DNA of 64,000 nucleotides from Verrucomicrobiota bacterium (GTDB lineage Bacteria > Verrucomicrobiota > Lentisphaeria > Oligosphaerales > Oligosphaeraceae): contig JAGVUR010000087.1 in NCBI GenBank assembly GCA_019136135.1, positions 62,001-126,000 on the forward strand. Reading direction: 5' to 3'. The first letter of the stretch is position 1, and each line of letters begins with the position of its first letter. Below the pieces are notes generated by a model, which had not been told where the DNA came from, ran no database searches, and worked only from the letters and a program-made list of their open reading frames with translations. A program made the position numbers and the translations under genes. Below are positions 29,353 to 47,983 of the stretch, piece by piece.

Positions 29353-32300
29353 TTAGTAGTTCGCCTCAATAATGTTTTTCCCAGGTTTCAGCGGGAGCTT
29401 TGTGGTACCTTGGGTGACTGTGATTTGCTGGTTGTTGACCATCATGGCCTTTGGCGAGACCAGGGTTGCGAGGGAGGATTCAGAGGCTTCCAGTTCCAGA
29501 GTCAGCTTTTTGGTTGCTGGTTCGAAGGTGAAGTCGATGATTTTTGCATTGACGCAATTGGTTAGGATTGGCGCATTTAGGGTTGTTGCCAGCGTGAGCG
29601 CGAGTGGATATGCTACCGTGATTCCCGGCCAATCCCGTTGCCAGAAATCGGCTTTTGATTCAATGATTTGATCTGCATAGTGTTCCAGATTCATTTCTGG
29701 GGTTTTGAAGAACGCGATTGGTTGCAGGTATCGTTCATTGCAAGCGATTTTACCTGATTCAGTCAGTGTCGGAATTGAGAAGTTGAGCATGTATTGCTGG
29801 ACATCGTGTTTGACGTACTTGTCATAGAGTTGGAAGAGGGCGCCAGGTGCGCCCTGCGAGAAGTCGAAGAGATCCATGGCGGAGGCGACATTGGAGTTGT
29901 TCCTCAGTGGATTCGGGTAGGTTTTTGGACCGTATTCACCGAATCCCGTGACGAGTGAGATTGTCCTGCCCGGAGCCTTGGGGTCGTTGGGTTGGTTCAT
30001 CCAAGTATGGAACCTAAGCCTGACCAAGGTTGGGACGGATCGTTTTGCGGCTCTGTAGATTGCATCGTCTTGTTCGGCTTTGTCCTTGGCGATTCGTGCT
30101 GCACGGGCGTGGCTGATGAATCCTGCGTATTCGCCGTTCAGCATATCGATCCAGGCTCCCGCGCCATCTTCTCGGCATGAACCTGAGTGGTATGCCCAGT
30201 CGTCCATCACCTTTTGATGGGTCATATTGTACTTGAGGTAGCTCCAATTGGCCTTGACAAGGTCTTGGAAGCCAAATCGTTCGGCAAGCAGATCCGCAAC
30301 CCATGCGATGACTGAAGAGGCCTCGTTGCAGTCGCCGTAGTTGTATTTGGTGCCTTGGTTTTCCTCGTAGCTGACTCCCAGCGGGTAGATGCTTCTGAAC
30401 ATCACAGGGTATTGCAATCCCGAGAAGGGTTCCATGCGGTGACGAGCCATGTTCTTGTATTGATATTGATCCAGCGGTTCGACGAATCGGTGGTTGACGC
30501 GCATCCTAAGCAACGCACGATTGCTGTCAGAGAGGAGGAAATAGCCCTGCAATGCAGTCGTGAGGCCGAATTGCCAGGTAAAGGGGCTGATATTGTCGCC
30601 GCCTCGACCGCCGCCCGGGACGTCGAATTGGAGCAATTCGTATGGTGCGAGGCCTCCCCAGGACCATTTGACGCCACCTTGGAAGGCTTTGTTGGCAGCA
30701 TCTATCCAGCGATGTTCCATGTTGAAGCTTGGTGTGACGATGCAAGCATCGATGTCAGGGAGGTCGAGGGAGTAGGTGAGGGTAGAACGACCCAGGACCG
30801 CCAAAGTCGGACCGTAGATTGAGGCGAGGTCAAGATCTTCAAGCTTGCCTTCTGTCGGGGAGTCAACATCAACCGTATCTCGCGTAACGATCAGCTTTTC
30901 GCGTTCGGCGATCGCCATCAAGGGTGGCATGATGCCGTAAGCGAACTTGGGGATGTTCCAATCGTTTTCCCAATAGTGATGCTCGGTTCGTTGGATGATC
31001 CTGACCTTATTGGATTTCTCATCGATCTTGAAGATTTCCTGTGCATGGACAGGAAAATTGAGCGCCATTTTGGCTTGGAGGTCGAGCTTGTCTCGAATTG
31101 CCAACGGGAGGTTTTCCGTCCATTCGTCTGTTTGTGTTTGTGCGGTTCCCCATGGCCAACCAGCGAGGAAAGTGTCGTTGTTGCCTGCTAGTTCGATGGT
31201 GAATCCCTCGATTGTGCCTTCGTATTCGCGAATGGTCAGCCTTTCCGGATTTCTCGGAAAGACAAGCAACAGGGGGTGGGTGGCTCCAAGCTTGTGGATT
31301 AGGATCCATGGACGTTTCAAGGAGCCGTGGCTAGCCTTGTCATAAAGGACTGTTTGACCTTGGAGCTTGATCGATTTCATCCCTTGCGAAGTCTCGAAAA
31401 TTGCCATGTCCGCAAGGTTTTCGACTGCCAGCATGATGCTTTTCGGCAGTTTCGAGTAGCACACGAAAGGCGAAAGAAGCGAGACTTGCTGCGTGAATGT
31501 TCCGCCTTCCTGCGTGATCTTCATTGTTTTTCCAACCCAATTGACGGATTCGATTTCCAGCTTTGCCTGATTGTTGGTCGAAGTCGCCGGCAGATCAACC
31601 CTAAACGATCTTGGGCCGACTTCGGAAGCCAGGTCGCGCCGCAAGGAGTAGTGCAGCAATCCTTCGGCGATATTGTACCCAAATCTTCCGAAATTATTGC
31701 TTGATTGTCCGACTTGCCAAGTGCCCGTGGTTGTTTCGGGAATCTCCTTGCGGATTTGATCGATGATGGCTTGGTCGGTTTTCCTGGCGCTGTCAAGCAG
31801 CTTGTCCTTGACGATATCGACAGTTGAAAAGGCTTCAGTTCGATTGGCCAAGTAGAGAATCGCTCTGATTAGAAATCTATCATAGTACAGGTCATCCGGG
31901 AGAAGCTGGACACCGATTCCCGTTGCGACGTAGATTGCATCGGTGTTTTCGACGACGCATGGCTGCCCGTTTTCGAAGTCGATGATCCTCGTTGCCCCTG
32001 GTTTTGCGGTTATGGAGTAGTACTGTCCGAAAGCCGCCTGGCTCAAGGTTTCGCCTTGGAGGAGCTTATGTTGTGTTGCTTGCTTGAGTCGATATCGTTC
32101 GGCATAGTCGTTTGGGTTCAGGTACTCCAGTTGGACTGGGATTGCGTTTTTGACGTCTTCGTCTGCCACGGATCCGAAGACCAGGAGCTTTTTGCCTTTT
32201 ATGGCATGTGGTTTTTCCGGATCGGGTTTAGCTCTTGAATAGACGATAACATCAGCATCTTGGTTATTGTCAACGATTTGGAAGAGTTGCCACTCTGATC

Positions 32301-33063
32301 TCATTTCGCTTGGGATGTTTTGCTGATCACCTTTTGTGTGTGCTGCGAGTCCTTTAAGGAGGAAGTTTTGGAAGCCAAGGTGCTGATTTGCTTCCTCGAA
32401 TTTCGTGCTGTCCTTTAAGGAAACATAGGCGATTTTGTCCTCGTTATCCAAGTCGAAGGCGACCTTGACAGGAGGCATGGCCGGCTTTTTCGCCTGCTGA
32501 TATGGGGTGAGAGCGGTGTTGTGGATCGTGTAGGAAATCCCCTGTGGACCCAGTTCGTGAGCGGAGCAAAAACGGATGTCGCGCACTTCAATCTCGGAAT
32601 GGTCATTGGGATTATAGGCGCCATTGAGATGGAATTTGACTTGTACGACTTTCCATATCGCATCTGAAAGATGAAAATCCGTATCCAATCCCATGACATA
32701 GGTTCTCCAATCCTGCGAATCGCCGGAGAATGCTGGGGCACGATGGGTAATCCAGCGTTTTCCGTTGCCTGGATTCGTGAGGATATGGACGTCAACAAGC
32801 GTGTTTTGGTTGGTTTTTCCGCCTTTCAGCCTGAAAGTCAGCTTGTATTGCGCGGGGACGTTGACGTCCGGTGTATTTCCTATTGCGATCGTGTAGTTTC
32901 TTGTGCCGGGAGTTTTGGGCATTGACAGTACAAATCCATTGTCATAGTTTTGTATGACGCCTACTGGCAGTTCCTTTGATTGCCAAACTCCAAACTTGTA
33001 TCCTGCGAATGCCTGTGTCACAGTCAACAGGCAGGCCAATCCGATGAAACATCCTGATCGCAT
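29353..33063 (-). CDS. Giant secreted protein, probable (alpha/alpha)-toroid polysaccharide-active enzyme
   Basis: 1236 residues behind AGGAG with a signal peptide (1-20, cut after AFA). Residues 25-165 resemble a carbohydrate-binding beta-sandwich (YKLTFRLKGGKTNQNTLVDVHI). Residues 440-720 are beta-rich. Residues 750-1110 are helical and aromatic with YNYGDCNEASSVIAW, DWAYHSGSCREDGAGAWIDML and GFGEYGPKTYPNPLRNNSN. A small C-terminal beta domain ends the chain. The shape suits a polysaccharide lyase or hydrolase but I cannot name a family. It is first in an operon with the GH65/GH95-like enzyme. Confidence 0.55.
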   Translation of the reverse strand: MRSGCFIGLACLLTVTQAFAGYKFGVWQSKELPVGVIQNYDNGFVLSMPKTPGTRNYTIAIGNTPDVNVPAQYKLTFRLKGGKTNQNTLVDVHILTNPGNGKRWITHRAPAFSGDSQDWRTYVMGLDTDFHLSDAIWKVVQVKFHLNGAYNPNDHSEIEVRDIRFCSAHELGPQGISYTIHNTALTPYQQAKKPAMPPVKVAFDLDNEDKIAYVSLKDSTKFEEANQHLGFQNFLLKGLAAHTKGDQQNIPSEMRSEWQLFQIVDNNQDADVIVYSRAKPDPEKPHAIKGKKLLVFGSVADEDVKNAIPVQLEYLNPNDYAERYRLKQATQHKLLQGETLSQAAFGQYYSITAKPGATRIIDFENGQPCVVENTDAIYVATGIGVQLLPDDLYYDRFLIRAILYLANRTEAFSTVDIVKDKLLDSARKTDQAIIDQIRKEIPETTTGTWQVGQSSNNFGRFGYNIAEGLLHYSLRRDLASEVGPRSFRVDLPATSTNNQAKLEIESVNWVGKTMKITQEGGTFTQQVSLLSPFVCYSKLPKSIMLAVENLADMAIFETSQGMKSIKLQGQTVLYDKASHGSLKRPWILIHKLGATHPLLLVFPRNPERLTIREYEGTIEGFTIELAGNNDTFLAGWPWGTAQTQTDEWTENLPLAIRDKLDLQAKMALNFPVHAQEIFKIDEKSNKVRIIQRTEHHYWENDWNIPKFAYGIMPPLMAIAEREKLIVTRDTVDVDSPTEGKLEDLDLASIYGPTLAVLGRSTLTYSLDLPDIDACIVTPSFNMEHRWIDAANKAFQGGVKWSWGGLAPYELLQFDVPGGGRGGDNISPFTWQFGLTTALQGYFLLSDSNRALLRMRVNHRFVEPLDQYQYKNMARHRMEPFSGLQYPVMFRSIYPLGVSYEENQGTKYNYGDCNEASSVIAWVADLLAERFGFQDLVKANWSYLKYNMTHQKVMDDWAYHSGSCREDGAGAWIDMLNGEYAGFISHARAARIAKDKAEQDDAIYRAAKRSVPTLVRLRFHTWMNQPNDPKAPGRTISLVTGFGEYGPKTYPNPLRNNSNVASAMDLFDFSQGAPGALFQLYDKYVKHDVQQYMLNFSIPTLTESGKIACNERYLQPIAFFKTPEMNLEHYADQIIESKADFWQRDWPGITVAYPLALTLATTLNAPILTNCVNAKIIDFTFEPATKKLTLELEASESSLATLVSPKAMMVNNQQITVTQGTTKLPLKPGKNIIEANY

Positions 33064-34924: not shown

Positions 34925-35617
34925 ATGTGCAAGAGACTTATCGTCATTTTGATGTTTTTTTGTGCCTTTGCCTTTGCGTTGGAATTGGAAGAAAAGGTAA
35001 AAATATGCGGGGTTTGCGGGAATGTTGTCCGGGTGACCGCCGTTGTTTCAGTGAATACGTTCGGCTCAATGGATCTGGATCTGAGGCCGGCGCCGGAGCG
35101 GCGGGATACCCTGAAGTACCAAATCGAACTCTGCAGGAATTGCGGCTATTGCTGGCCGGATATCGGCAAGGAACGCAAGCGAGAATCAATTGCTCAAGTC
35201 CTGAATGCATCCCTGAAATTCGATGACTTGGCGGCATTGTTCGCTAGGGCGGCCGAAATCGAAATCGCTACAAACCAAGGAGCCTCGTTCGCATCCTTTA
35301 TGCTCTACATGAAAGCTGCTTGGGCAGAAGATGATGCCGATAATGACGATGAGGCGAAGAAGTATCGGCGCCAAGCCGTAGAGCAAATGACCAAATATAT
35401 GGAAGCCGACCAAATCGCCAGGCTAACCCCGGATAATTACCTGATTCAGATTGACGCCGCAAGGCGATGCGGGGATTTCGAACTTGCGGAAAAACTTCTA
35501 AAAACAGCAACGCCAATGGCTAACGCAGGATTGCTCAGGAAAATCTTGGTCTTCCAAAAACGGCTCGTCGAACGAAAGGATATTGGGCGTTATACCGTTG
35601 CGGATGCGGATAATTAA
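34925..35617 (+). CDS. Exported DUF2225-like zinc-ribbon protein
   Basis: 230 residues with a signal peptide (1-18, ending AFAL). Right after it come CGVCG (28-32) and CRNCGYC (69-75), the four-Cys layout and PAPERRDTLKYQIELC spacing of DUF2225-type proteins, then a helical TPR-like region (ASFMLYMKAAWAEDD, NYLIQIDAARRCGDFELAEKLL). DUF2225 proteins are usually cytoplasmic; an exported form is odd. It ends 16 bp before the 1499-residue lyase-like protein and should be co-transcribed. The function is unknown. Confidence 0.7.
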   Translation: MCKRLIVILMFFCAFAFALELEEKVKICGVCGNVVRVTAVVSVNTFGSMDLDLRPAPERRDTLKYQIELCRNCGYCWPDIGKERKRESIAQVLNASLKFDDLAALFARAAEIEIATNQGASFASFMLYMKAAWAEDDADNDDEAKKYRRQAVEQMTKYMEADQIARLTPDNYLIQIDAARRCGDFELAEKLLKTATPMANAGLLRKILVFQKRLVERKDIGRYTVADADN

Positions 35618-35633
35618 TAATTATGGAGGCGAC

Positions 35634-38600
35634 ATGCTGAGAAATTTGCTGCTGTTGTTGCTGATTTCACAGATCGCCTTGTGCGAAAATCTTCTGAAAG
35701 ATCCGCCTCGCCTTGTGGGAAATGCACGTCTCGTGGAAGATGTGTTTCAAATTGAGAATCCAGCTCCAACGATGTCGGAGGTGGTCTATGAAGTCGATTT
35801 GAACCAATCCGAACCAAAAGACTTCCGCTATGGATGTTTCTCGAAAAGCGTAGGAAGCGACACCAAGAAATCTGTTGATTATTCGATATCGGTGTTTCTG
35901 ACTTTTCAGGACAGGAGCCAATTGAGTTGGATCAATGTCTGTTTCAATGAAAATCAAGCCTGGGCAGGCGCGGAGAGAGTATATGCTCCGAAAAAGGCAA
36001 TCAAGACCGCAACGGTAAAGCTAGTCTATAAGCGAGCCGGAAAAGCCGAGTTCAAAGAACCATTTTTCGAAACCGTCATCCATAGACCTGCCAAAATCGA
36101 TCCTGCAGTAGGTGATGAGTGGCAAAAAATCGGGTTGTTGAAGCAATTCCAACGAGATCTTAACCTGGAAACCAAGTTGGACAATTGCGCTATCGTCCTG
36201 CCAAAGGGCGAGGAGGCCGCGAATTGGGGCAAGAAAATCAAAGATGCGCTGCTAGTCGCAACAGGCAAAAACATTCCAATTGTTAAGGATGACCAGTATG
36301 CGCTTGCCAATAACCTAGACAAGAACCTGATTGTCATCGGGAATCGGCATGACAATGCGACCATAGATCATTTGTACCTCCTCCACTATGTCATCCTGGA
36401 TTGCGCTTATCCAGGTTCGGAAGGATACGTGGTCAGGACGCTCCACAACCCATTCGGAGACGGGCATAATATCGTGTTCGCAGGCGGCAGCGACAAGCAA
36501 GGAACCGGAGAAGCAGTCGAAAAACTCGTTGAAATCATCAGGGCAACCAAGGCTTCAAGCCTGCCACGCCAATGCGTGATACGCCTGGGAGCGGAATTTG
36601 AGGTGCCGGAGAGCGGGAATAAAGTGAATCTGTGGGAGGAGTCGCGAGGCTACGGAAAGGTAGGCTACTTCGGATGGAATAGCCTTTCCAGAAACTTGGC
36701 GATGCACTACATGACCGGTGAAAAACGATTCGCAAGGGAATTCATCCGCCTGGCTTTCCCGAAAACAGCCGAAGATAGAGCTGAATTGTTCAAGCTCGAT
36801 GACGAATCCTACAGGGATATCCATCGCCCCTTGGCGGAACCCTACCACTATCGCTCGATTATGGTTCCCTTGTACTGGGATTTGGTTGAGGAATCCGATG
36901 CGTTCACCGACGAGGAACGTGAAGCCGTCACCCGTGAACTATACGCACAATTGGTCAATCGACTCCTCGATAAGCACTACTACAATATTCACAATTTTGG
37001 CAAGAGGCCACTCAAGTATTTACCTGACAGGCATTTGGCATGGGAAGCCGTGACGGTTTTCGTTACGGCTAGGTATTTTGCCCGCCAGTACGATTGCTTT
37101 GATGGCAAGTATGGTCTTGAACTCTGCGCCAATGCATTTTGGAGTTTGGATTACTACGCCTCTTGCATTCACACCAGTTCATTTTTCTGGTACAACACGT
37201 TCATCGAGCCTTTCTTTCACTATGCCGCCTTGTCGGGTGGTCGCAACTATTTGGGTAGCAAGGTATTGAAGCGATTAGCGGAGGGGTTGGCCGCCTTCTC
37301 GGAAGTCATTGAGAACGATTGGTCGCAAGCCTATTCCAGTTCTGCGTTTTTGGGAATGGCTGCTTGTCTGACTCAAGACCAGGCGTTTGTGACGCTTCGC
37401 GAAAAGCTGGACCTTGCGAAAAGTCCGTTCCGTGCAGGTCAATCCTACTTGATGATTGAGCCGTACGAGCAGGATTTCTTCAAGCGCGAATCGGGTCGAT
37501 TCTACACCTATGCTGCGGATAGTCGTGGAGTTTCCTGGAACCCGCCATTTGACGTATCGGAAGTCATCGAGTGGATGTCCTATCGAGAAAAGCCCGGTGA
37601 CGAGGGGGATTTCCTCTTGATCGACCCCAAGTACGGAACTGGAGGTCGAATCCCAGCTCATAATTTCAATTTGCTGACGCTGAGATTAGGCAAGGACAGG
37701 CTCCTTCATGGGTATGCCAACCAAATCTTCTGCTTCGCAGACGGATTGGCCAATCTCAAAACATGCGATTTCGCACATGTGACCGAGTATGGAAGCTGCT
37801 TTGACGGAGATACCGTCTTCGTAAAGGCTAACCTCAAGGACTACAATGGGTTCGATTGGACAAGAGCCTTCATTGTCAGAAGAAACCAATGGCTGGTGGC
37901 ATGGGATGAACTTAAGCCTGTCAGAAGCATGAGCACCTGCGAAATCATGAACCGATGGCAACCGGCATCACAAGTCATCAGTACCCGGATAAATGATGAC
38001 TTCCAGCTGACATTGCCTAGGCTCAACCAACCGGAATCTACTGAAGGACTGCACCTCTACATGGGACGAGACGATATCGCCAAGGCGGTTGATTGGAAGG
38101 ATAAATTCAACTCAAGCAATAAGCTGTATGTTTGCTTCAATGGCGTACAAGTCGGTACGGTTTTGACTATCCCGTTTACATTGGAAAAGCCTGCCAGCGG
38201 CAACCTGAGAATCAAAATGGGATGCCATGCAGGACGAAGAGGGCGTTTAAGATTCAAGTTGGACGGGAAAACCATCGTCGAAGACTTTGACCACAAGGAT
38301 CCAAAAGGAGCTGTCCTGAAAACTCTCGAACTGGGACAATATCAACTTGCGGGAGGAAACCATAAACTCGAAGTCGAAAGCTTGACAATCGACGAACCGA
38401 CCTCGACAATCGTCGGGATGACAGACCTGGAATTCTCGTCCGATGGCTTCAAACTCCCTTCAAATACCTGGATTTTGTCCAGTTCAATTGTCGGTGAACG
38501 GGAAATGGTATCTGTCAGCGGAGGACGCGCATTGGAATTCAGGTACGAAGGCGAGCCGAAATCCAATGGAATCTGCTTCGCAACTGTACTCGGAAGAAAC

Positions 38601-40133
38601 GAAGCAGGAGAAATCTCTGCGCGGCAATCGAGCGATGAAGTCGTTGATCTCCATGTGCCATCACGGGTTCGAATCAGCCGTCATGGCGAAGGAATCGTGC
38701 TTCAGGAAGCTGATGGCAACATCGTTGCCCTGAGCGTAAAGGAAGTCCCGAATGTATTCCGATCCGAAGTCCCCGCCGTCGCCTGCCTGAAAGGCGATCA
38801 GTTGGAAATCAGATGCAAGCAATCCGGAAAGCTGACGATGGAGGATGGAAGAACACTCGAACTGAAGCCAGATGCCCCGAATATCGTCGCAAAAGTCAAC
38901 GCCAAGCTAAGCCCGCTACCAGATATCGAAGACAAAAAAGTTGAGCAGACGAAACGACAAGTAGAACCCAAAAAAGGAGAATGGAAACCTGTAGTTAATG
39001 GAAAATTGCCGACTGAGCATGGTGGGTGCGTCGTCGTTGACGGCAACCAATGGGCGGCTTCCAGCGGAAAGCAAGTCGCTTTGATCTCCAGTTCAGGTCA
39101 AGTGATTCGGACATTTGAGTTGGATGCGATCGTTGGTGCCTTGTGGCTCGGAGACGGGCTTTTGGTGGCTGGATGCCGAGACGAGAAAGTGGTCGCATTC
39201 CAGCTTTCAACTGGCGAGCGACTCTGGGAATTCAAATCCGAAATGTCCGATGGATTGGTTGCTGGCTCGCAGTTTTATTGGTTTAAATCAGCTTTGCCCG
39301 GTGTTTCCGCCTTGTCAGCCTGCGCGTTTGATGGCGGTGAGAAGCTGTTGTTTGTTGGAAGCACATCGACGGTCGAGGTTCTGGAGTTGAAAACAGGTCG
39401 CTTGCTTGCTCGAAAACAAACCGAGTATGGTTATGTGACGGGTTTCGAGTTCGTTCCTGGAGATGGAAACAAGAGGCAGGATCATATGCTGGCCTACAGG
39501 CGATCAGGTGGATTCCCGACTGTCTATGCTTTTGACAAGTCGTTGAATGTCAAAAATATAGGAATGGGTGTCGGGACTGACGGACAGAGTATGGGAAACT
39601 TCGGCTACAGTGGTGTGGGGCGAGGTTTTCTGGTCGCCGCAAAACTGGAACCGCAAGGCGACCTGAAGTTAGTCGGGGATTTCAACGGGGTCTTGAATCG
39701 AGTCGGAGTCTGGAATGCAACAGGACAAATCCAGCATGACGTGAGTTTTGGCGATGGCTTCCAGGCTACCTCAGGCAACTACGGCAATTGGGCGCTCCGT
39801 AGCGCAAACATCAAAGACCTCAAGGTTGGGGATCTGGACGGCGACAAAATACAAGAAATCATTGTAGCCTACAATCGGCGCAGAATCTTTGCCTTCAATC
39901 CAGACTTGACGCTCAAAAAACTTTGGATCCTCGATAATACGCCAACAACTCTCGCAACCTTGGGCAATCGACTCGTCGCAGGATGCACTAAAGGAACCAT
40001 CTTTGAGCTTCATCTCGATGGCACCGTACGGCAAGCCGCAAAGCTCAATGGGACAATCGTAGCGCTTTCCTCGACCAATGACGGCAAATGCATTGCCGTA
40101 ACAAACAAAGGCGAATGGGCAATATTCCAGTAG
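35634..40133 (+). CDS. Giant secreted lyase-like protein: toroid domain plus C-terminal beta-propeller
   Basis: 1499 residues from the ATG at 35634 (GGAGG 5-6 bp before; the open frame extends upstream to 35583, inside the previous gene). Signal peptide MLRNLLLLLLISQIALC. In order: a beta-sandwich (20-165), an alpha/beta domain like those preceding glucuronidase-type catalytic domains (185-325, NLIVIGNRHDN, GGSDKQGTGEA), an (alpha/alpha)-toroid with heparinase/alginate-lyase flavour (340-640, HYYNIHNFGKRPLKYLPDRH), a beta-sandwich (650-1120) and a PQQ/WD-type propeller (1120-1499) of repeated blades such as GGCVVVDGNQWAASSGKQ. Probably degrades an acidic polysaccharide; no catalytic residue could be assigned. 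Confidence 0.6.
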   Translation: MLRNLLLLLLISQIALCENLLKDPPRLVGNARLVEDVFQIENPAPTMSEVVYEVDLNQSEPKDFRYGCFSKSVGSDTKKSVDYSISVFLTFQDRSQLSWINVCFNENQAWAGAERVYAPKKAIKTATVKLVYKRAGKAEFKEPFFETVIHRPAKIDPAVGDEWQKIGLLKQFQRDLNLETKLDNCAIVLPKGEEAANWGKKIKDALLVATGKNIPIVKDDQYALANNLDKNLIVIGNRHDNATIDHLYLLHYVILDCAYPGSEGYVVRTLHNPFGDGHNIVFAGGSDKQGTGEAVEKLVEIIRATKASSLPRQCVIRLGAEFEVPESGNKVNLWEESRGYGKVGYFGWNSLSRNLAMHYMTGEKRFAREFIRLAFPKTAEDRAELFKLDDESYRDIHRPLAEPYHYRSIMVPLYWDLVEESDAFTDEEREAVTRELYAQLVNRLLDKHYYNIHNFGKRPLKYLPDRHLAWEAVTVFVTARYFARQYDCFDGKYGLELCANAFWSLDYYASCIHTSSFFWYNTFIEPFFHYAALSGGRNYLGSKVLKRLAEGLAAFSEVIENDWSQAYSSSAFLGMAACLTQDQAFVTLREKLDLAKSPFRAGQSYLMIEPYEQDFFKRESGRFYTYAADSRGVSWNPPFDVSEVIEWMSYREKPGDEGDFLLIDPKYGTGGRIPAHNFNLLTLRLGKDRLLHGYANQIFCFADGLANLKTCDFAHVTEYGSCFDGDTVFVKANLKDYNGFDWTRAFIVRRNQWLVAWDELKPVRSMSTCEIMNRWQPASQVISTRINDDFQLTLPRLNQPESTEGLHLYMGRDDIAKAVDWKDKFNSSNKLYVCFNGVQVGTVLTIPFTLEKPASGNLRIKMGCHAGRRGRLRFKLDGKTIVEDFDHKDPKGAVLKTLELGQYQLAGGNHKLEVESLTIDEPTSTIVGMTDLEFSSDGFKLPSNTWILSSSIVGEREMVSVSGGRALEFRYEGEPKSNGICFATVLGRNEAGEISARQSSDEVVDLHVPSRVRISRHGEGIVLQEADGNIVALSVKEVPNVFRSEVPAVACLKGDQLEIRCKQSGKLTMEDGRTLELKPDAPNIVAKVNAKLSPLPDIEDKKVEQTKRQVEPKKGEWKPVVNGKLPTEHGGCVVVDGNQWAASSGKQVALISSSGQVIRTFELDAIVGALWLGDGLLVAGCRDEKVVAFQLSTGERLWEFKSEMSDGLVAGSQFYWFKSALPGVSALSACAFDGGEKLLFVGSTSTVEVLELKTGRLLARKQTEYGYVTGFEFVPGDGNKRQDHMLAYRRSGGFPTVYAFDKSLNVKNIGMGVGTDGQSMGNFGYSGVGRGFLVAAKLEPQGDLKLVGDFNGVLNRVGVWNATGQIQHDVSFGDGFQATSGNYGNWALRSANIKDLKVGDLDGDKIQEIIVAYNRRRIFAFNPDLTLKKLWILDNTPTTLATLGNRLVAGCTKGTIFELHLDGTVRQAAKLNGTIVALSSTNDGKCIAVTNKGEWAIFQ

Positions 40134-42250: not shown

Positions 42251-43909
42251 TCATTTTTTCTCCCCCTTTTTCGATTGTCGCAACACAGTCCGTCCCTTGT
42301 CGGTAAGCCGGTACTTCTGTTGGCAACTGGTTAGTTTATCAGGAATAGTCATTTCGATAAGACCATCTTTCAGTGCTGGATGAATATATGTTTCCCTGAG
42401 TCTTCGACGGCTTTTCAATTGAAATGATTTCAAAATATCTGCGCTTCCAAGTGGTTCATCGGACTCAAGCAAGTTGAGAAGGCGGTGGACATATTTGTTG
42501 ACTGGTGCCGTGGCTGGTGCCGTGGCTGGTGCCGTGGCTGGTGCCGTGGCTGGTGCCGTGGCTGGTGCCGTGGCTGGTGCCGTGGCTGGTGCCGTGGCTG
42601 GTGCCGTGGCTGGTGGTGCCGTGGCTGGTGCCGTGGCTGGTGCCGTGGCTGGTGCCGTGGCTGGTGCCGTGGCTTCGGGGTCAGCATGTTTGGTTGCTGG
42701 AGCCAGCGGCACAGTCACCTTGAACATGTCGCCATCATCGAATATCGGCGTGCCTGCACCAGGAGCGTAGTACGGCAGATACATATGTACTTTGCGGACA
42801 CCGGAGCCGAGTTCCTCATAGCGACCAATCTGGAGCATGAACTTGCAGATGGTTGGGTTCTTGGGAAACGGCGTAAAATTGCCGGGGTCAATGCGACCGT
42901 GATAGTAAGGAACGCTGGGATTCAGGAACTCAACGCGGTCATTATAGATTACCATCGTGGCCGGGGCGGCGCTAGTATATTCCCGGTGGGCGATAATGTT
43001 GGCTACCAGTTCGCGGAAGATGACCGAGCGCAGGCTGATGCTTGTGGTATCCTCCATGTAGAAGGGATCATTCAGGTGCTTGTTGACAAAGCCCATGAGC
43101 AGATCAAAGGCATCAATGAGATTATTCCGGACAATCAGCCGGTCGTCGTAGCGTTCGGTATCGCGACGACGCAAAAGCGCATCAAACTTGTAGCCGGGAA
43201 CAATGCTTTGGATTGTCATATCGTAGCCAAACATCAGAGCTGCCGCCAGGGTGTAGCCAGGTTTGCCAGTCAAATAGTCTTTCCGAATAAATCCAGCCAC
43301 TTTGAGGAACTCTTCGGGTGGCAAATTAGCCCAAGGATGTTGCGGCTGGCGACCGAGCATCAACTTCTTGGCCTTCTCAATGAGGGCGGGATTGAGATCA
43401 TTGAGTCCCAGATACGGATAAACCCGCTGCTCAGTAAAAAAACTCAATTTTCGGTTCATCAGTCCAGCCAGACGATTGACACCCTTGACTTTGTAGTCGC
43501 CATCCTCGCTACGCAGATAGACATTGCTCCCAACCTGATGAATTTGGGAACTTGCGGGTACAAGCACTTTAATGACCAATTTGCCAGCAACCTGCTCTTC
43601 TTGCGGAAACAGCATATGCGGTGGATCGAGCTTCTGTGGATTGTTAGACAAATTGGCGATATCTATCTTAATCCGTTCAACCGCATCGGCATCCACACCT
43701 GAGACTGTGCCGTCGTCTTCCACTCCCAGAATGATTTGCCCTCCATTCATATTTAGAAATGCGCAAACCGTGTCGAAAAAGTTGGTTGGCAACTGATCCG
43801 TCGCCCTTTTGAACTCCAGATTCAACCCCTCTTTTTCGCCAAAGGGCTTTCTTGCCGTCTTCTTGCTTTTCATTCCCTTTCTCACCTCCGTGTCTTCGTG
43901 TGAAATCAT
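42251..43909 (-). CDS. AlbA/Schlafen-like ATP-binding protein with Thr-Ala-Pro-Ala linker
   Basis: 552 residues. The AlbA_2/Schlafen-type domain (about 25-150) has EGLNLEFKRA, AFLNMNGGQIILGVEDDG and VYLRSEDGDYKV; an HATPase-c_4-like region (300-400) has FRELVANIIAHREY and GRYEELGSGVRK. These COG2865-type proteins are putative nucleic-acid-binding regulators, some linked to defence. Residues 412-469 are 14 ATAP units encoded by a 12-bp minisatellite, joining a C-terminal winged-helix-like domain (470-545). The first residues (ISHEDTEVRKG) are encoded by what looks like an intergenic repeat, so the ATG at 43873 is a possible true start. Target unknown. Confidence 0.8.
   Translation of the reverse strand: MISHEDTEVRKGMKSKKTARKPFGEKEGLNLEFKRATDQLPTNFFDTVCAFLNMNGGQIILGVEDDGTVSGVDADAVERIKIDIANLSNNPQKLDPPHMLFPQEEQVAGKLVIKVLVPASSQIHQVGSNVYLRSEDGDYKVKGVNRLAGLMNRKLSFFTEQRVYPYLGLNDLNPALIEKAKKLMLGRQPQHPWANLPPEEFLKVAGFIRKDYLTGKPGYTLAAALMFGYDMTIQSIVPGYKFDALLRRRDTERYDDRLIVRNNLIDAFDLLMGFVNKHLNDPFYMEDTTSISLRSVIFRELVANIIAHREYTSAAPATMVIYNDRVEFLNPSVPYYHGRIDPGNFTPFPKNPTICKFMLQIGRYEELGSGVRKVHMYLPYYAPGAGTPIFDDGDMFKVTVPLAPATKHADPEATAPATAPATAPATAPATAPPATAPATAPATAPATAPATAPATAPATAPATAPATAPVNKYVHRLLNLLESDEPLGSADILKSFQLKSRRRLRETYIHPALKDGLIEMTIPDKLTSCQQKYRLTDKGRTVLRQSKKGEKK
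42504..42674. repeat. 12-bp minisatellite, 14 units
   Basis: Fourteen tandem copies of GGTGCCGTGGCT (plus strand), nearly identical, with a single 3-bp insertion (GGT) about 105 bases in. They are in frame and encode the ATAP linker of the AlbA-like protein. Such perfect units should gain or lose copies by slippage without breaking the frame. Confidence 0.97.
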
Positions 43910-44165: not shown

Positions 44166-44735
44166 TTAACCTATCAATTGATTGAAAATTTCAGTTGATA
44201 CCGTCAACACATCGCGATGCAGGCTGTTGCCATGGGCATCCATCGTGACGACGGCTGGGAAATCGACGACTTGGAACTGCCAGATTGCTTCTGGCGCACC
44301 AAAATCATCGTAATAGAACACGTTTTCAACGGCTTTGACGCATTGTGCCAGGACTTGAGCCGCTCCTCCGACGGCGTGCAGGTAAACGCACCCAAATTGC
44401 TTGCAAGCATCAGCTGTCGCTTGTCCCATGCCGCCTTTCCCAATGATTGCCTTGAGTTTGAATCGTTCGATCAGTGCAGCCTCGTAAGGCTCTTCCCTGC
44501 TTGACGTCGTTGGTCCTGCCGCTGTGACTTTCCAGGAGCCGTTATGCTTGACGATCACTGGGCCGCAATGGTAGATCACCGCATTGCGCAGGTCAGGAGC
44601 GGGTGATTTTAGCACTTGATTGACCACCAAGTACTGGTGGGCGGCGTCTCTTGCGGTGAAAATAGTCCCTGTCAAGGCAACGCTTTGCCCAAGCTTTAGC
44701 GATCGGACCTGTGATTCTGTCAATGGGAGTTGCAT
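44166..44735 (-). CDS. Class I fumarate hydratase/tartrate dehydratase, beta-type subunit
   Basis: 189 residues. Conserved blocks are SVALTGTIFTARDAAHQYL, IYHCGPVI, AAGPTTSSREEPYEA, IIGKGGMG and FGCVYLHAVGGAAQVLA, matching the C-terminal half or beta subunit of oxygen-sensitive iron-sulfur fumarases (fumarate to malate). The 4Fe-4S cluster is held by the alpha subunit, whose gene is not in this window; two-subunit enzymes are normally encoded side by side. It follows yicC by 15 bp as the last gene of the lexA-ruvAB operon. Tartrate dehydratase is the main alternative. Confidence 0.88.
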   Translation of the reverse strand: MQLPLTESQVRSLKLGQSVALTGTIFTARDAAHQYLVVNQVLKSPAPDLRNAVIYHCGPVIVKHNGSWKVTAAGPTTSSREEPYEAALIERFKLKAIIGKGGMGQATADACKQFGCVYLHAVGGAAQVLAQCVKAVENVFYYDDFGAPEAIWQFQVVDFPAVVTMDAHGNSLHRDVLTVSTEIFNQLIG

Positions 44736-44750
44736 GGGACTAGCCGAGAA

Positions 44751-45626
44751 TCATTCGATGTTCATAATTTGCTCACGGATGCGGGCAATTTCTGTTTTGA
44801 GCGTCAATGCGTACGTCGCAATATCCATATCTGCGGTTTTTGCCGAGAGCGTATTTGCTTCCCGGTTCATTTCCTGTCCTAGGAAATCCAGGTTACGCCC
44901 TGTATCGTCTTCGCTGTTCAGCAGTTCTTTGTACTTGACGAGGTGGGATTGCAGTCTGACGGTTTCCTCGGTGATATCTGCTTTTTCCACGTAGAAAGCC
45001 AATTCTTTCGCCAATCGTTCATCATCGAGTGGGATTTCCACGCCCAGCTTTTCGATTCTTTCCTGGAGTCGTTCCTTTTGCAGGATCACAGCATCGTCTG
45101 CGCGGGCGGCGATCTTTTCGACCAGCTCCCCCAGTAGCTTGCCGCGTTCCATCAGGTCGTCTTTCAGCCGAAGCCCTTCTTCGACCTTGGATTTGTCCAA
45201 GGCATCCAATGCATCCTGCAAAGCCTGGATTGACAAGTTCTGGATCTGTTCCTGGCAATCCAAGCTGGTGTCTGACAAAACACCAGGTACGAGCAGGATG
45301 TCGCCAATCGTCGGTTCAGGCAATCCCGTCGTGTCTGCCAAGGACTTCAATTCCTTGCTGACCAAGGCGAATTTCTTATGGTCAATCGATTGGATGGCTT
45401 GTTGCGCGGTGTCGTCAAGCTTGTATGAAAGGACGATTTGAATGCTGCCTCGGGAGAGCTTTTCGAGGATGATTTTCCGCAAGGCAGGTTCCAGCATTCC
45501 CAGTTCACGCGGAATGGTGAATCGCATATCGACCTGCTTGCGGGAATTGACGGCTGATAGTTCAATGGTCACCTGGCAGCCATCGGCGGAAGCGGTGGCG
45601 CGACCATATCCTGTCATGCTTTTCAT
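44751..45626 (-). CDS. yicC: YicC/YloC-family endoribonuclease
   Basis: 291 residues starting MKSMTGYGRA, the signature of the family, behind AAGGA. The N-terminal region (1-155) and C-terminal DUF1732-type end (DFLGQEMNREANTLSAKTADM, IREQIMNIE) are complete. Family members cut RNA, and in E. coli affect small-RNA turnover. The gene lies 20 bp after ruvB in the SOS-type operon, an uncommon placement, since yicC more often neighbours gmk and rpoZ. Confidence 0.93.
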   Translation of the reverse strand: MKSMTGYGRATASADGCQVTIELSAVNSRKQVDMRFTIPRELGMLEPALRKIILEKLSRGSIQIVLSYKLDDTAQQAIQSIDHKKFALVSKELKSLADTTGLPEPTIGDILLVPGVLSDTSLDCQEQIQNLSIQALQDALDALDKSKVEEGLRLKDDLMERGKLLGELVEKIAARADDAVILQKERLQERIEKLGVEIPLDDERLAKELAFYVEKADITEETVRLQSHLVKYKELLNSEDDTGRNLDFLGQEMNREANTLSAKTADMDIATYALTLKTEIARIREQIMNIE

Positions 45627-45646
45627 AGTGCTTCTGTCCTTATTGC

Positions 45647-46711
45647 TCAGAATAGTTCGGGTTGGATTTTTGTGGAAGCATCGCCATCGCGTGAAGGCTT
45701 ATGGAGGTGCGAAGCGGTTGGAATGATTCCGAATCGTTTGAACGCCTTGTCAGTCGCCAGCCTTCCTGCCGGCGTGCGCATCAGGTACCCTTCTTGAATC
45801 AGGTATGGCTCATAGACTTCTTCGATGGTGCTTTCTTCTTCGCCCACTGCGACCGCGAGGGATTTGAGTCCCACGGGATGTCCTTTAAAGTTGACGATCA
45901 TCGCCTCGAGGATCCGGTTGTCCATATCGTCGAGTCCATCGATATCAATATCAAGCATGGTCAATGCCTCGTCGGCGATTTCGGGATTGATTTCGGGTAT
46001 GTTTTTGACCTGGATAAAGTCGCGGACCCACCTGACCAACTGGTTTGCGATACGTGGTGTTCCCCGTGCCCGCCTGGAAATCATGTCAAGCCCTTCCTTT
46101 TGCGCCTTGACTCCGAGCACATTTGCGGTGCGGGTCAGGATTTTGGTCAGGTCTTCGACGTTGTAGTAGTCAAGCCTGCATGTCATGGTGAATCTTGAGC
46201 GTAGCGGCGATGAGAGTTTTCCCTGGCGGGTCGTTGCGCCAATCAGCGTGAATTTTGGGAGTGTGAGGCGGACGGATCTGGCCCCGACTCCCTGTTCGAG
46301 CATAATGTCAATGACGAAGTCTTCCATTGCCGAGTAGAGGTATTCCTCGATGGGCATGGTGAGGCGGTGGATTTCGTCAATGAAGAGGATGTCGCCTTCC
46401 TTCAAGCTTGTGAGCAATCCGGCAAGATCGCCGGGTTTTTCGATAACCGGTCCCGACGTCGCCTTGATGTCAGCACCAAGATTGTTGGCGATGATATTGG
46501 CTAGCGTAGTCTTTCCGAGCCCGGGCGGTCCGCAAAGGAGGACGTGCGACATGGGCTCCGAGCGCGATTTTGCCGCCTGTGCCATGATCAGGAGGCGTTC
46601 CTTGACTCGGTCTTGCCCGGGGAAGTCCTCGAATCTCTGTGGTCTCAAGGGGATTTCGAAGCTTTCTTCCCGGGCATTGAGTTCGGATGTGATGAATCGT
46701 TCTGAAGCCAT
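45647..46711 (-). CDS. ruvB: Holliday junction branch migration helicase RuvB
   Basis: 354 residues of the AAA+ motor that drives branch migration with RuvA. Walker A is GPPGLGKTT (61-69), Walker B LFIDEIH (109-115), sensor 1 LIGATTRQGKLSSPLRSRF, and the C-terminal winged helix ends YLMRTPAGRLATDKAFKRFG. The start overlaps the ruvA stop by one base (TAATG). It belongs to the lexA-ruvA-ruvB-yicC-fumarase run, so LexA control is likely. Confidence 0.98.
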   Translation of the reverse strand: MASERFITSELNAREESFEIPLRPQRFEDFPGQDRVKERLLIMAQAAKSRSEPMSHVLLCGPPGLGKTTLANIIANNLGADIKATSGPVIEKPGDLAGLLTSLKEGDILFIDEIHRLTMPIEEYLYSAMEDFVIDIMLEQGVGARSVRLTLPKFTLIGATTRQGKLSSPLRSRFTMTCRLDYYNVEDLTKILTRTANVLGVKAQKEGLDMISRRARGTPRIANQLVRWVRDFIQVKNIPEINPEIADEALTMLDIDIDGLDDMDNRILEAMIVNFKGHPVGLKSLAVAVGEEESTIEEVYEPYLIQEGYLMRTPAGRLATDKAFKRFGIIPTASHLHKPSRDGDASTKIQPELF

Positions 46712-47343
46712 TATGAATTAAGCAACGCTAGGGATTTTCGGATTAGAGATTCGGTCGAAGGGGAATCGGAGGACTTTTCAAGGAGTGATGCAACGATCTT
46801 GGCAGCGACGTCTCGTTTGAAGCCCAGGGTCTCAAGCGCGGCAATGGCATCACGTGCCTCGGGAGGCAAGGACTTGTCCTGACGCAAGCCCGATGCGGAA
46901 CCAGATGACGAATCGGAGGAACCACCGAGCAAACCTAATTTAACGACTTTGTCACGGAGCTCGACGACCATCCGCTCGGCTGTTCGCTTGCCAATGCCTG
47001 AGATCTTTGACAGCAGCTTCAGGTCGCCTTCGGCAATCGCCTTGGCAAAATCCGCTATCGATAGCGAGCTGAGTACGTTCAGTGCCAATTTAGGACCAAT
47101 TCCGGAGACTTGTGTCGTCAGCAGGATGAACAACATCTTTTCCTCCTTGGTTCCAAATCCGTACAGCTGGATGTCATCCTGGCGGACCAGCATCGCTGTA
47201 CGCAAAGTCACGCGCTGCCCAGGAGGAGGCAGGATATCAAAGGTGCTCAATGGTATCGACAAGCCGTACCCAACGCCATTTACGTCCAAGATCACAGACG
47301 TGAAATCGGACTCGACCACGGTTCCAGTAAGCTGCGCAATCAT
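46711..47343 (-). CDS. ruvA: Holliday junction binding protein RuvA
   Basis: 210 residues. The OB-fold domain (1-65) starts MIAQLTGTVVE and contains LYGFGTKEEKMLFILL. Two helix-hairpin-helix motifs follow (LTTQVSGIGPKLALNVLSS and ISGIGKRTAERMVVELRDK), then a Ser/Gly linker (SSDSSSGSASG) and the RuvB-binding domain III (DAIAALETLGF). It binds four-way junctions as a tetramer. It sits 13 bp after lexA and is coupled to ruvB. Confidence 0.97.
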   Translation of the reverse strand: MIAQLTGTVVESDFTSVILDVNGVGYGLSIPLSTFDILPPPGQRVTLRTAMLVRQDDIQLYGFGTKEEKMLFILLTTQVSGIGPKLALNVLSSLSIADFAKAIAEGDLKLLSKISGIGKRTAERMVVELRDKVVKLGLLGGSSDSSSGSASGLRQDKSLPPEARDAIAALETLGFKRDVAAKIVASLLEKSSDSPSTESLIRKSLALLNS

Positions 47344-47356
47344 GTCAAATCCCGGT

Positions 47357-47983
47357 TTAGTAGAGGCGTTGCAGGGCGACGACTACCCCTTGGATCGCAA
47401 GCTTGTCGTAGTCGTAATATCTGGATCTATATTCCTTGTTTGCGGGACGCAATTCGTATTGCATCGAGTCTGACAGGTACAGGGATTTGATGGTGGTTTC
47501 GCCGCCTTCGACGATGGCGATCACAATGTCACCAATGCTCGCTTGTTCGACTTTCTTCGCGATTACAATGTCGCCCTCGAAAATCCCCATGTCCTTCATG
47601 GAATCGCCTTGGACGATCAGACCGAACAACTTGTAGCCGCCAAGACCGCGGGGCAACATCGCTGGGTCAACCTGGATTTTGCGTTCAATGTTTTCCTCTG
47701 CGAGAAGCGGTATCCCAGCTGAAATGCGACCCAAGATCGGAACGCTTAGCGTCAATGACAAATGCTTGGGACGATCGGCGTGCAAGACGGATAGGCTACG
47801 CGCCTTCGAGGAGCGAGTCACATAACCCTTTCGCTCCAATGCCTTGACATGCGCAAACGCCGTCGCACTCTTGATGTCAAACCTGTGGGCAATCTCCGAA
47901 TTGGTTGGAGCCATCCCCTCTTGCCTTGTAAAATCCGAAATAAAATCCAAGATTTCCTGTTGCCTGTCAGTCAGTCCTTTCAT
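47357..47983 (-). CDS. lexA: SOS repressor LexA
   Basis: 208 residues starting behind GGAGG. The N-terminal winged helix (1-65) has LTDRQQEILDFI and PTNSEIAHRFDIKS. The self-cleavage site is A89-G90 (GRISAGIP) and the Ser-Lys dyad is S128 (QGDSMKDMGI) and K166 (TTIKSLY). It represses DNA-repair genes until RecA filaments trigger its cleavage. It heads the ruvA-ruvB-yicC operon, and palindromes just upstream (48029-48064) are candidate autoregulatory operators. Confidence 0.97.
   Translation of the reverse strand: MKGLTDRQQEILDFISDFTRQEGMAPTNSEIAHRFDIKSATAFAHVKALERKGYVTRSSKARSLSVLHADRPKHLSLTLSVPILGRISAGIPLLAEENIERKIQVDPAMLPRGLGGYKLFGLIVQGDSMKDMGIFEGDIVIAKKVEQASIGDIVIAIVEGGETTIKSLYLSDSMQYELRPANKEYRSRYYDYDKLAIQGVVVALQRLY

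What the first reader, a model, noticed from the sequence alone, without database searches (positions are those of the whole stretch)
42504..42674. In-frame 12-bp minisatellite as a variable linker in an AlbA/Schlafen-like protein
Fourteen near-perfect GGTGCCGTGGCT units encode ATAP repeats between the ATPase-like part and a C-terminal winged helix. Units are a multiple of 3, so copy changes tune linker length without loss of the protein. The repeat has no stop codon in any frame, so long open frames appear on both strands. This resembles adjustable linkers in immune or regulatory proteins.
Basis: seen in the sequence. Interest (0 to 1): 0.55.

Follow-up and report, generated by a model that had tools for sequence, protein, structure and literature searches.

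The report
Stretchable tether in a Schlafen-like protein
A bacterial Schlafen-type protein carries a run of 14 identical four-residue repeats that joins its enzyme body to a predicted DNA-binding head, and relatives suggest that this joint changes length and that the head behind it can be exchanged, although what the protein acts on is not known.

Summary
The repeat is real and its coordinates are exact: 14 perfect 12-bp units plus one extra codon at 42504-42674. It lies in a 552-aa minus-strand gene (42251-43909) with Schlafen AlbA_2, HATPase_c_4 and a Fic-like_C winged helix (wHTH). The linker is predicted disordered. Unit number differs in the nearest relatives: 14 here; 7, 5 and 2 elsewhere. 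Another gene of the family, about 99% identical in two genomes, has 4 versus 9 units. Tetrapeptide repeats at this joint are common in the family: 21 of 29 proteins found by the enzyme core alone have them, 20 of these 21 with a 4-aa period. The unit sequence tracks the helix-turn-helix part of the head, not the core. In two of three close pairs the repeats and wHTH helices 1-3 are replaced or strongly diverged together, between nearly identical flanks. Tether and helices 1-3 therefore look like one exchangeable cassette. Length tuning is plausible (precedent: HsdS TAEL repeats) but untested. Within-species typing could not be done, so neutral slippage in a tolerant linker is not excluded.

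The parts
42251..43909 (-). 552-aa protein P0001: SLFN_AlbA_2 + HATPase_c_4 + repeat linker + Fic-like_C winged helix
   Evidence: best fold match 3lmm (DIP2311), then Schlafen N-terminal domains; head also 4rgl
43487..43831 (-). SLFN_AlbA_2 domain, residues 27-141 (putative RNase part; E27, E32, K34 mostly conserved)
   Evidence: Pfam 2.8e-15; E27 in 42, E32 in 44, K34 in 41 of 56 sequences; role as RNase is by analogy
42785..42952 (-). HATPase_c_4 match, residues 320-375 (GHKL-like ATPase region; conserved E300/N304/H308 lie just before it)
   Evidence: Pfam 6.7e-06, 26.5 bits against a cut-off of 26; conservation
42504..42674 (-). 12-bp minisatellite, 14 identical units + 1 codon, encodes (ATAP)5 P (ATAP)9; predicted disordered tether
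   Evidence: pLDDT below 50 for residues 405-467
42302..42490 (-). Fic-like_C winged helix, residues 474-536: helices 1-3 (472-514 in the model; the part replaced or diverged in close relatives of other family members), then wing and C-terminal helix (the constant tail)
   Evidence: Pfam 1.6e-18; model secondary structure; replacements in relatives

Best explanation
The array is an in-frame minisatellite, by its uniformity recently expanded, that forms the disordered tether between the enzyme core (Schlafen AlbA_2 plus GHKL-like ATPase) and a wHTH head. It is one allele of a family-wide tetrapeptide tether that gains and loses 12-bp units by slippage or unequal crossing-over. Tether and the first three wHTH helices (including the recognition helix) behave as one cassette: they are inherited, and apparently exchanged, together, while core and wing tail stay constant. 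Shown: the anatomy by sequence and model, unit-number differences between relatives, the 4-aa period, co-variation of unit type with HTH type, two close pairs with sharply bounded replacement or divergence, and tandem duplication of repeat+wHTH modules. Inferred: that the tether sets the reach of the head, that its repeats (with the conserved wing block) are a seam for recombination, that the head chooses the target or signal, and that the core is an RNase set off by it.
For: Relatives of the window gene: G434, core 86% identical over residues 12-405, 7 units; G020 5; G003 2. In these four copies the 9 bp ACGGCACCA are constant, except for one base in two of the seven G434 units, while the first codon varies; the window array is all of the GCC variant. 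Another gene of the family, ~99% identical in G011 and G026: 4 vs 9 units, exactly 60 bp. Found by core alone: 21 of 29 have at least ~3 copies, 20 of 21 with period 4; shuffles 0 of 1450, core windows 0 of 86. Found by wHTH: 63 of 168, period 4 in 57 of 63; shuffles 3 of 3360, other windows of the same proteins 5 of 468; by core class Alb 47/69, Fic 6/71, other 10/28. Of three Alb pairs with cores of 90% or more, two, L014/L017 and L034/L055, have ~95% identical DNA in the core, then an unrelated (HTH 32%) or strongly diverged (HTH 57%) linker+HTH, then a near-identical tail. Unit follows HTH (partial rank r 0.34, 0 of 200 permutations reach it), not core (0.007). In L231 duplicated modules 2 and 3 differ by 36 bp in the linker. 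Linker disordered, head well folded in the model.
Against: No within-species data. G003's copy runs into a contig end and G020's open frame has unrelated sequence upstream of the linker, so only the window and G434 copies are complete. Most genomes are drafts, in which repeat counts can be wrong. Unit-HTH co-variation was tested by permutation, which does not remove relatedness. L034/L055 could be fast divergence instead of replacement. 22 of 69 Alb-type linkers pass no repeat threshold. Nothing shows that the head binds DNA, that the core cuts RNA, or that tether length matters. The window gene is not beside recognisable defence genes among the 19 window ORFs scanned with Pfam, and its own PADLOC matches are weak.
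Confidence: 0.6

Rival explanations
1. Neutral slippage: a disordered linker tolerates in-frame 12-bp steps, the units are kept alike by homogenisation, and neither the length nor the repeat has a function.
For: The linker is predicted disordered. Unit sequences vary freely, about 40 types. In one apparently broken relative (G007:C18, L259) two units are 10 bp long and the frame is lost. In the 57 period-4 arrays 157 of 225 adjacent unit pairs are identical in DNA, as slippage would give.
Against: Slippage alone does not explain why the period is 4 residues in 57 of 63 and 20 of 21 arrays, nor why the same wHTH on Fic cores has at least ~3 copies in only 6 of 71. Descent from an ancestral tetrapeptide could explain part of the period bias.
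Confidence: 0.3
2. Adjustable linker proper: unit number itself is the selected variable and resets the spacing between head and core, as in type IC HsdS.
For: Steps of exactly 12 bp between near-identical genes. [quoted passage not shown]).
Against: HsdS differs by single units of a short spacer; here 2 to 14 copies of a predicted disordered, proline-rich tether, for which single-unit steps should matter little. No functional data.
Confidence: 0.2
3. Assembly error: the true unit number or homogeneity differs from the draft assembly.
For: The genome is a 217-contig draft, 88% complete, and a 171-bp array is longer than a typical short read (recalled).
Against: An extra codon breaks the array, the frame is intact on both sides, and relatives carry related arrays at the same place. 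In the other examples, the L123 and L055 genes lie in G011, which is a single 5.7-Mb contig.
Confidence: 0.07
4. A DNA-level element (hairpin-forming array) or a coding antisense frame is what matters.
For: Both strands fold better than dinucleotide shuffles, z -4.44 and -3.40; a 405-aa antisense ORF exists.
Against: The repeat units of relatives differ widely in sequence. The antisense frame stays long without the array and the longest antisense run in G434 is only 257 codons.
Confidence: 0.03

Closest known systems
COG2865-type proteins: SLFN_AlbA_2 (PF04326) + HATPase_c_4 (PF13749) + C-terminal wHTH; solved example 3lmm (DIP2311)
   Same: Domain order and best fold match. [quoted passage not shown] The COG name is from recall.
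   Different: The passages I saw say nothing of a repeat tether or head exchange. The window gene has no defence neighbours among the ORFs scanned.
Type IC HsdS tetra-amino-acid repeats (TAEL/LEAT; E. coli, NgoAV)
   Same: In-frame units encoding 4 residues between functional parts, differing in copy number, in a protein whose target-recognition domains are shuffled between alleles (passages).
   Different: Not an HsdS: no S-subunit domain found. Units here are predicted disordered and diverse, and 2-14 copies occur in the window's relatives instead of two or three.
Fic proteins with a Fic-like_C wHTH (solved example 4rgl)
   Same: Same wHTH family; many have a short xQV-type tetrapeptide lead-in.
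   Different: Fic core instead of Schlafen core; at least ~3 copies in only 6 of 71; on average the HTH stays closer to the core, with exceptions such as L084/L065.
Phase-variable contingency loci (simple sequence repeats)
   Same: Repeat number changes, presumably by slippage.
   Different: The unit is a multiple of 3, so no on/off switch is expected; only length changes.

Membership tests
SLFN_AlbA_2 / COG2865-type regulator-nuclease | AlbA_2 domain above curated cut-off | tested here: met
   57.3 bits, cut-off 25.3
SLFN_AlbA_2 / COG2865-type regulator-nuclease | HATPase_c_4 domain plus C-terminal wHTH | tested here: met
   26.5 bits, cut-off 26 (only just above); Fic-like_C 66.8 bits, cut-off 27; fold match to 3lmm
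SLFN_AlbA_2 / COG2865-type regulator-nuclease | RNase activity with carboxylate active site | tested here: inconclusive
   E27 in 42, E32 in 44, D65 in only 24 of 56 sequences; assignment to the Schlafen active site is recalled; activity needs the bench
Type IC HsdS with tetrapeptide repeats | HsdS target-recognition domains | tested here: not met
   No such Pfam or NCBIfam match up to E = 1
Type IC HsdS with tetrapeptide repeats | 12-bp/4-aa units between functional parts with copy-number differences | tested here: met
   works-like only, not membership
Type IC HsdS with tetrapeptide repeats | Copy number changes target spacing | not testable with these tools
   Needs binding or activity assays
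Known anti-phage defence system (PADLOC) | Strong match to a defence protein model | tested here: not met
   Best E 4.3e-4 (PDLC02402) and 3.2e-3 (pAgo), both short stretches
Phase-variable contingency locus | Repeat change shifts reading frame or switches expression | tested here: not met
   Unit is 12 bp; differences in the readable copies compared are multiples of 12 or 3 bp. Expression was not tested

The most novel reading that the evidence does not exclude
Bacterial Schlafen-type effectors carry an exchangeable head made of a tetrapeptide-repeat tether plus the first three wHTH helices. Recombination between the repeats on one side and the conserved wing block on the other swaps the head and so retargets the effector, while slippage adjusts its reach: a two-dial diversification system comparable to HsdS in restriction systems, in a different protein family.
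Probability: 0.3. Interest if true: 0.75.

Novelty: new variant of a known kind. Interest (0 to 1): 0.52.

Why it matters
If the head is a swappable sensor or targeting part, the repeat marks the seam at which these proteins change what they respond to. Variable part and effector could then be told apart by sequence alone, and chimeras become directly testable. Even if the length is neutral, the period of four residues, found in 77 of 84 arrays over two overlapping samples with about 40 unit sequences, asks for a structural reason.

Tried and rejected
Antisense gene: rejected, because the frame stays long without the array and the longest antisense run in G434 is 257 codons. Selection on unit sequence from pN/pS between adjacent units (0.53): not used, since arrays were picked for amino-acid likeness. 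TRF over the fetched loci (156 of 313 unique arrays have a 12-bp period): not used as a background, since the loci are centred on this gene family. Defence-island test: flank ORFs of Alb-type and Fic-type loci were scanned with PADLOC (94 of 138 and 94 of 161 flank ORFs). Both sets hold type I restriction genes (HsdS models match up to 6 of 94 and up to 3 of 94; a restriction-subunit model 6 of 94 in the Fic set), so the test does not single out Alb, and no such neighbour was seen for the window gene. E. coli strain typing: a Gallibacterium Alb gene found nothing; a Pseudomonas one found 38 of 5426 genomes. In the one E. coli chromosome opened, and on one IncC plasmid, this is a 387-aa relative beside TrlF, too short for the linker and wHTH, so strain-level unit number could not be tested; the other hit records were not opened. 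The phage search gave 44 records, all under 60% identity. A search for five repeat strings in papers found none. So 'not described' means only: not found by these searches in the held library, which lacks bioRxiv.

Full report
The observation. The minus-strand gene 42251-43909 encodes 552 aa. Positions 42504-42674 hold nine perfect GGTGCCGTGGCT units, an extra GGT and five more units. It is the only place in the window with three identical tandem 12-mers, and a double unit occurs nowhere else in the draft genome (4.74 Mb, 217 contigs, 88% complete). It encodes (ATAP)5 P (ATAP)9.

Anatomy. Pfam finds SLFN_AlbA_2 (27-141), HATPase_c_4 (320-375, just above its cut-off) and Fic-like_C (474-536). 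An AlphaFold model built with 13 GTDB and 2 IMG/VR relatives (mean pLDDT 74, pTM 0.48, so the domain arrangement is uncertain) has pLDDT below 50 for residues 405-467 and about 90 for most of the wHTH. Its best fold matches are 3lmm (DIP2311, C. diphtheriae), then N-terminal domains of Schlafens 13, 14, 11 and 5; for the head also 4rgl and PadR-type wHTHs. E27, E32 and K34, and E300/N304/H308/N351/G370, are conserved; naming them as Schlafen and GHKL motifs is from recall.

Nearest relatives. A search of 59 relatives and of 387 genomes of the phylum gives a series at the same joint: window 14 units; G434, another family, core 86% identical, 7 units; G020, same family, 5 units; G003, same genus, 94% and 90% identical in protein on the two sides of the linker, 2 units. 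G003's copy meets a contig end, and G020's open frame has unrelated sequence upstream of the linker, so those two are not known to be whole genes. A further, apparently broken remnant in G007 has about nine TAP-type units, two of them 10 bp long. The four readable copies share ACGGCACCA (one base changed in two of the seven G434 units) with GCC, GTC or GTT before it. The window array is all GCC, a variant seen once in G003, so it looks like a recent expansion of one unit. Another gene of the family is about 99% identical in G011 and G026 but has 4 versus 9 RPES units, a difference of exactly 60 bp.

A family trait. Sample A was found by the wHTH: loci, the 30 loci and 60 further places from its list, the best 80 of 583 relatives in GTDB and 11 IMG/VR loci. 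It gave 190 unique domains, of which 22 were dropped (short upstream, incomplete, weak or masked). 63 of 168 have at least about three tandem copies in the 70 aa before the head; 57 of 63 have period 4 aa. Controls: 3 of 3360 shuffles and 5 of 468 other windows of the same proteins. By core class: Alb-like 47 of 69, Fic 6 of 71, other 10 of 28. Sample B was found by the window's enzyme core alone: 21 of 29, period 4 in 20 of 21; 0 of 1450 shuffles, 0 of 86 core windows. Seven of the 29 are proteins that also lie in sample A loci, and relatives are not independent in either sample.

A cassette. Three Alb pairs have cores of 90% or more. L123/L124 keep the HTH (98%) and differ in unit number. 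L014/L017 (two genomes of one genus) are about 96% identical in DNA up to the linker; then the repeats (GPES vs GEQV) and the first three wHTH helices are unrelated (HTH 32% identical), and the last ~80 bp, from the wing on, are again nearly identical. L034/L055: core 94%, HTH 57%, tail 100%, with sharp edges at the DNA level; here strong divergence is an alternative to replacement. Across Alb pairs with cores 60-69% identical (47 pairs) the HTH averages 29% and the tail 68%; for Fic pairs at the same core identity (310 pairs) the HTH averages 50% and the tail 70%. Fic pairs have exceptions: L084/L065, core 99% over 148 aa, HTH 56%, tail 100%. Among 70 arrays of non-Fic proteins the repeat unit follows HTH identity (partial rank correlation 0.34; 0 of 200 label permutations reach it) and not core identity (0.007). 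For pairs with similar cores, 9 of 13 with similar HTHs share at least 3 of 4 unit positions, against 6 of 50 with dissimilar HTHs; for pairs with dissimilar cores, 86 of 276 against 110 of 1475. Permutation does not remove relatedness. L231 has three tandem repeat+wHTH modules; modules 2 and 3 are 269/294 identical and differ by 36 bp in the linker. L033 has two such modules, and L030 two with another wHTH type. The window's own HTH was not swapped relative to G003, G020 or G434.

Mechanism. The simplest reading is a disordered tether that lengthens and shortens in 12-bp steps and is transmitted with the reading head. The repeats on one side and the conserved wing block on the other are natural seams for recombination. 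What the head reads is unknown. PMC12839542 (passages only) describes Schlafen RNases fused to a minimal histidine kinase and wHTH as associated with BREX in at least 1017 taxa, and cites a preprint that bacterial Schlafens defend against phage (not read). The window gene itself lies among ordinary genes: SASA esterase, fumarase C-terminal part, YicC, RuvB, RuvA, LexA.

Precedent. Type IC HsdS proteins carry TAEL/LEAT repeats, and unit number goes with a 1-bp change of spacer (passages in PMC6789123 and PMC10030836). The present protein is not an HsdS; the resemblance is in how it may work.

Limits. No within-species typing, mostly draft genomes, no assay. Neutral slippage in a tolerant linker remains the main rival; the strong period of four and the contrast with Fic proteins speak against pure neutrality but do not exclude it.

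Noticed in passing
L231 (G409:C331), C-terminal 341 residues: Three tandem repeat-linker + wHTH modules in one protein; modules 2 and 3 are 269/294 identical but differ by 36 bp in the linker.
   Followed up: partly
L259 (G007:C18:164139-164309): Apparently broken remnant of a TAP-type array in which two units are 10 bp long, so the frame is lost, in contrast with readable genes.
   Followed up: partly
L084 vs L065 (Fic-type loci of one genus): Fic cores 99% identical over 148 aa with HTH 56% and tail 100% identical: head replacement may also happen on Fic proteins.
   Followed up: no
window 42485-43702, + strand: 405-aa antisense ORF across the gene; long even without the array, and the longest antisense run in the G434 relative is 257 codons.
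   Followed up: yes
window 44166-47983: Fumarase C-terminal-type gene, YicC, RuvB, RuvA and LexA lie in a row upstream of the gene on the same strand.
   Followed up: no
window 29353-33063 and 35583-40133: Two very large ORFs (1236 and 1516 aa) without any Pfam match at 1e-5.
   Followed up: no
L224 1498-2661 and L225 2269-3432: On an IncC plasmid and an E. coli chromosome a 387-aa relative, too short for linker and wHTH, sits between TrlF ATPase and HsdS genes.
   Followed up: partly
L109 1214-1574: 65-bp-period repeats that look like a CRISPR array near a repeat-linker gene.
   Followed up: no
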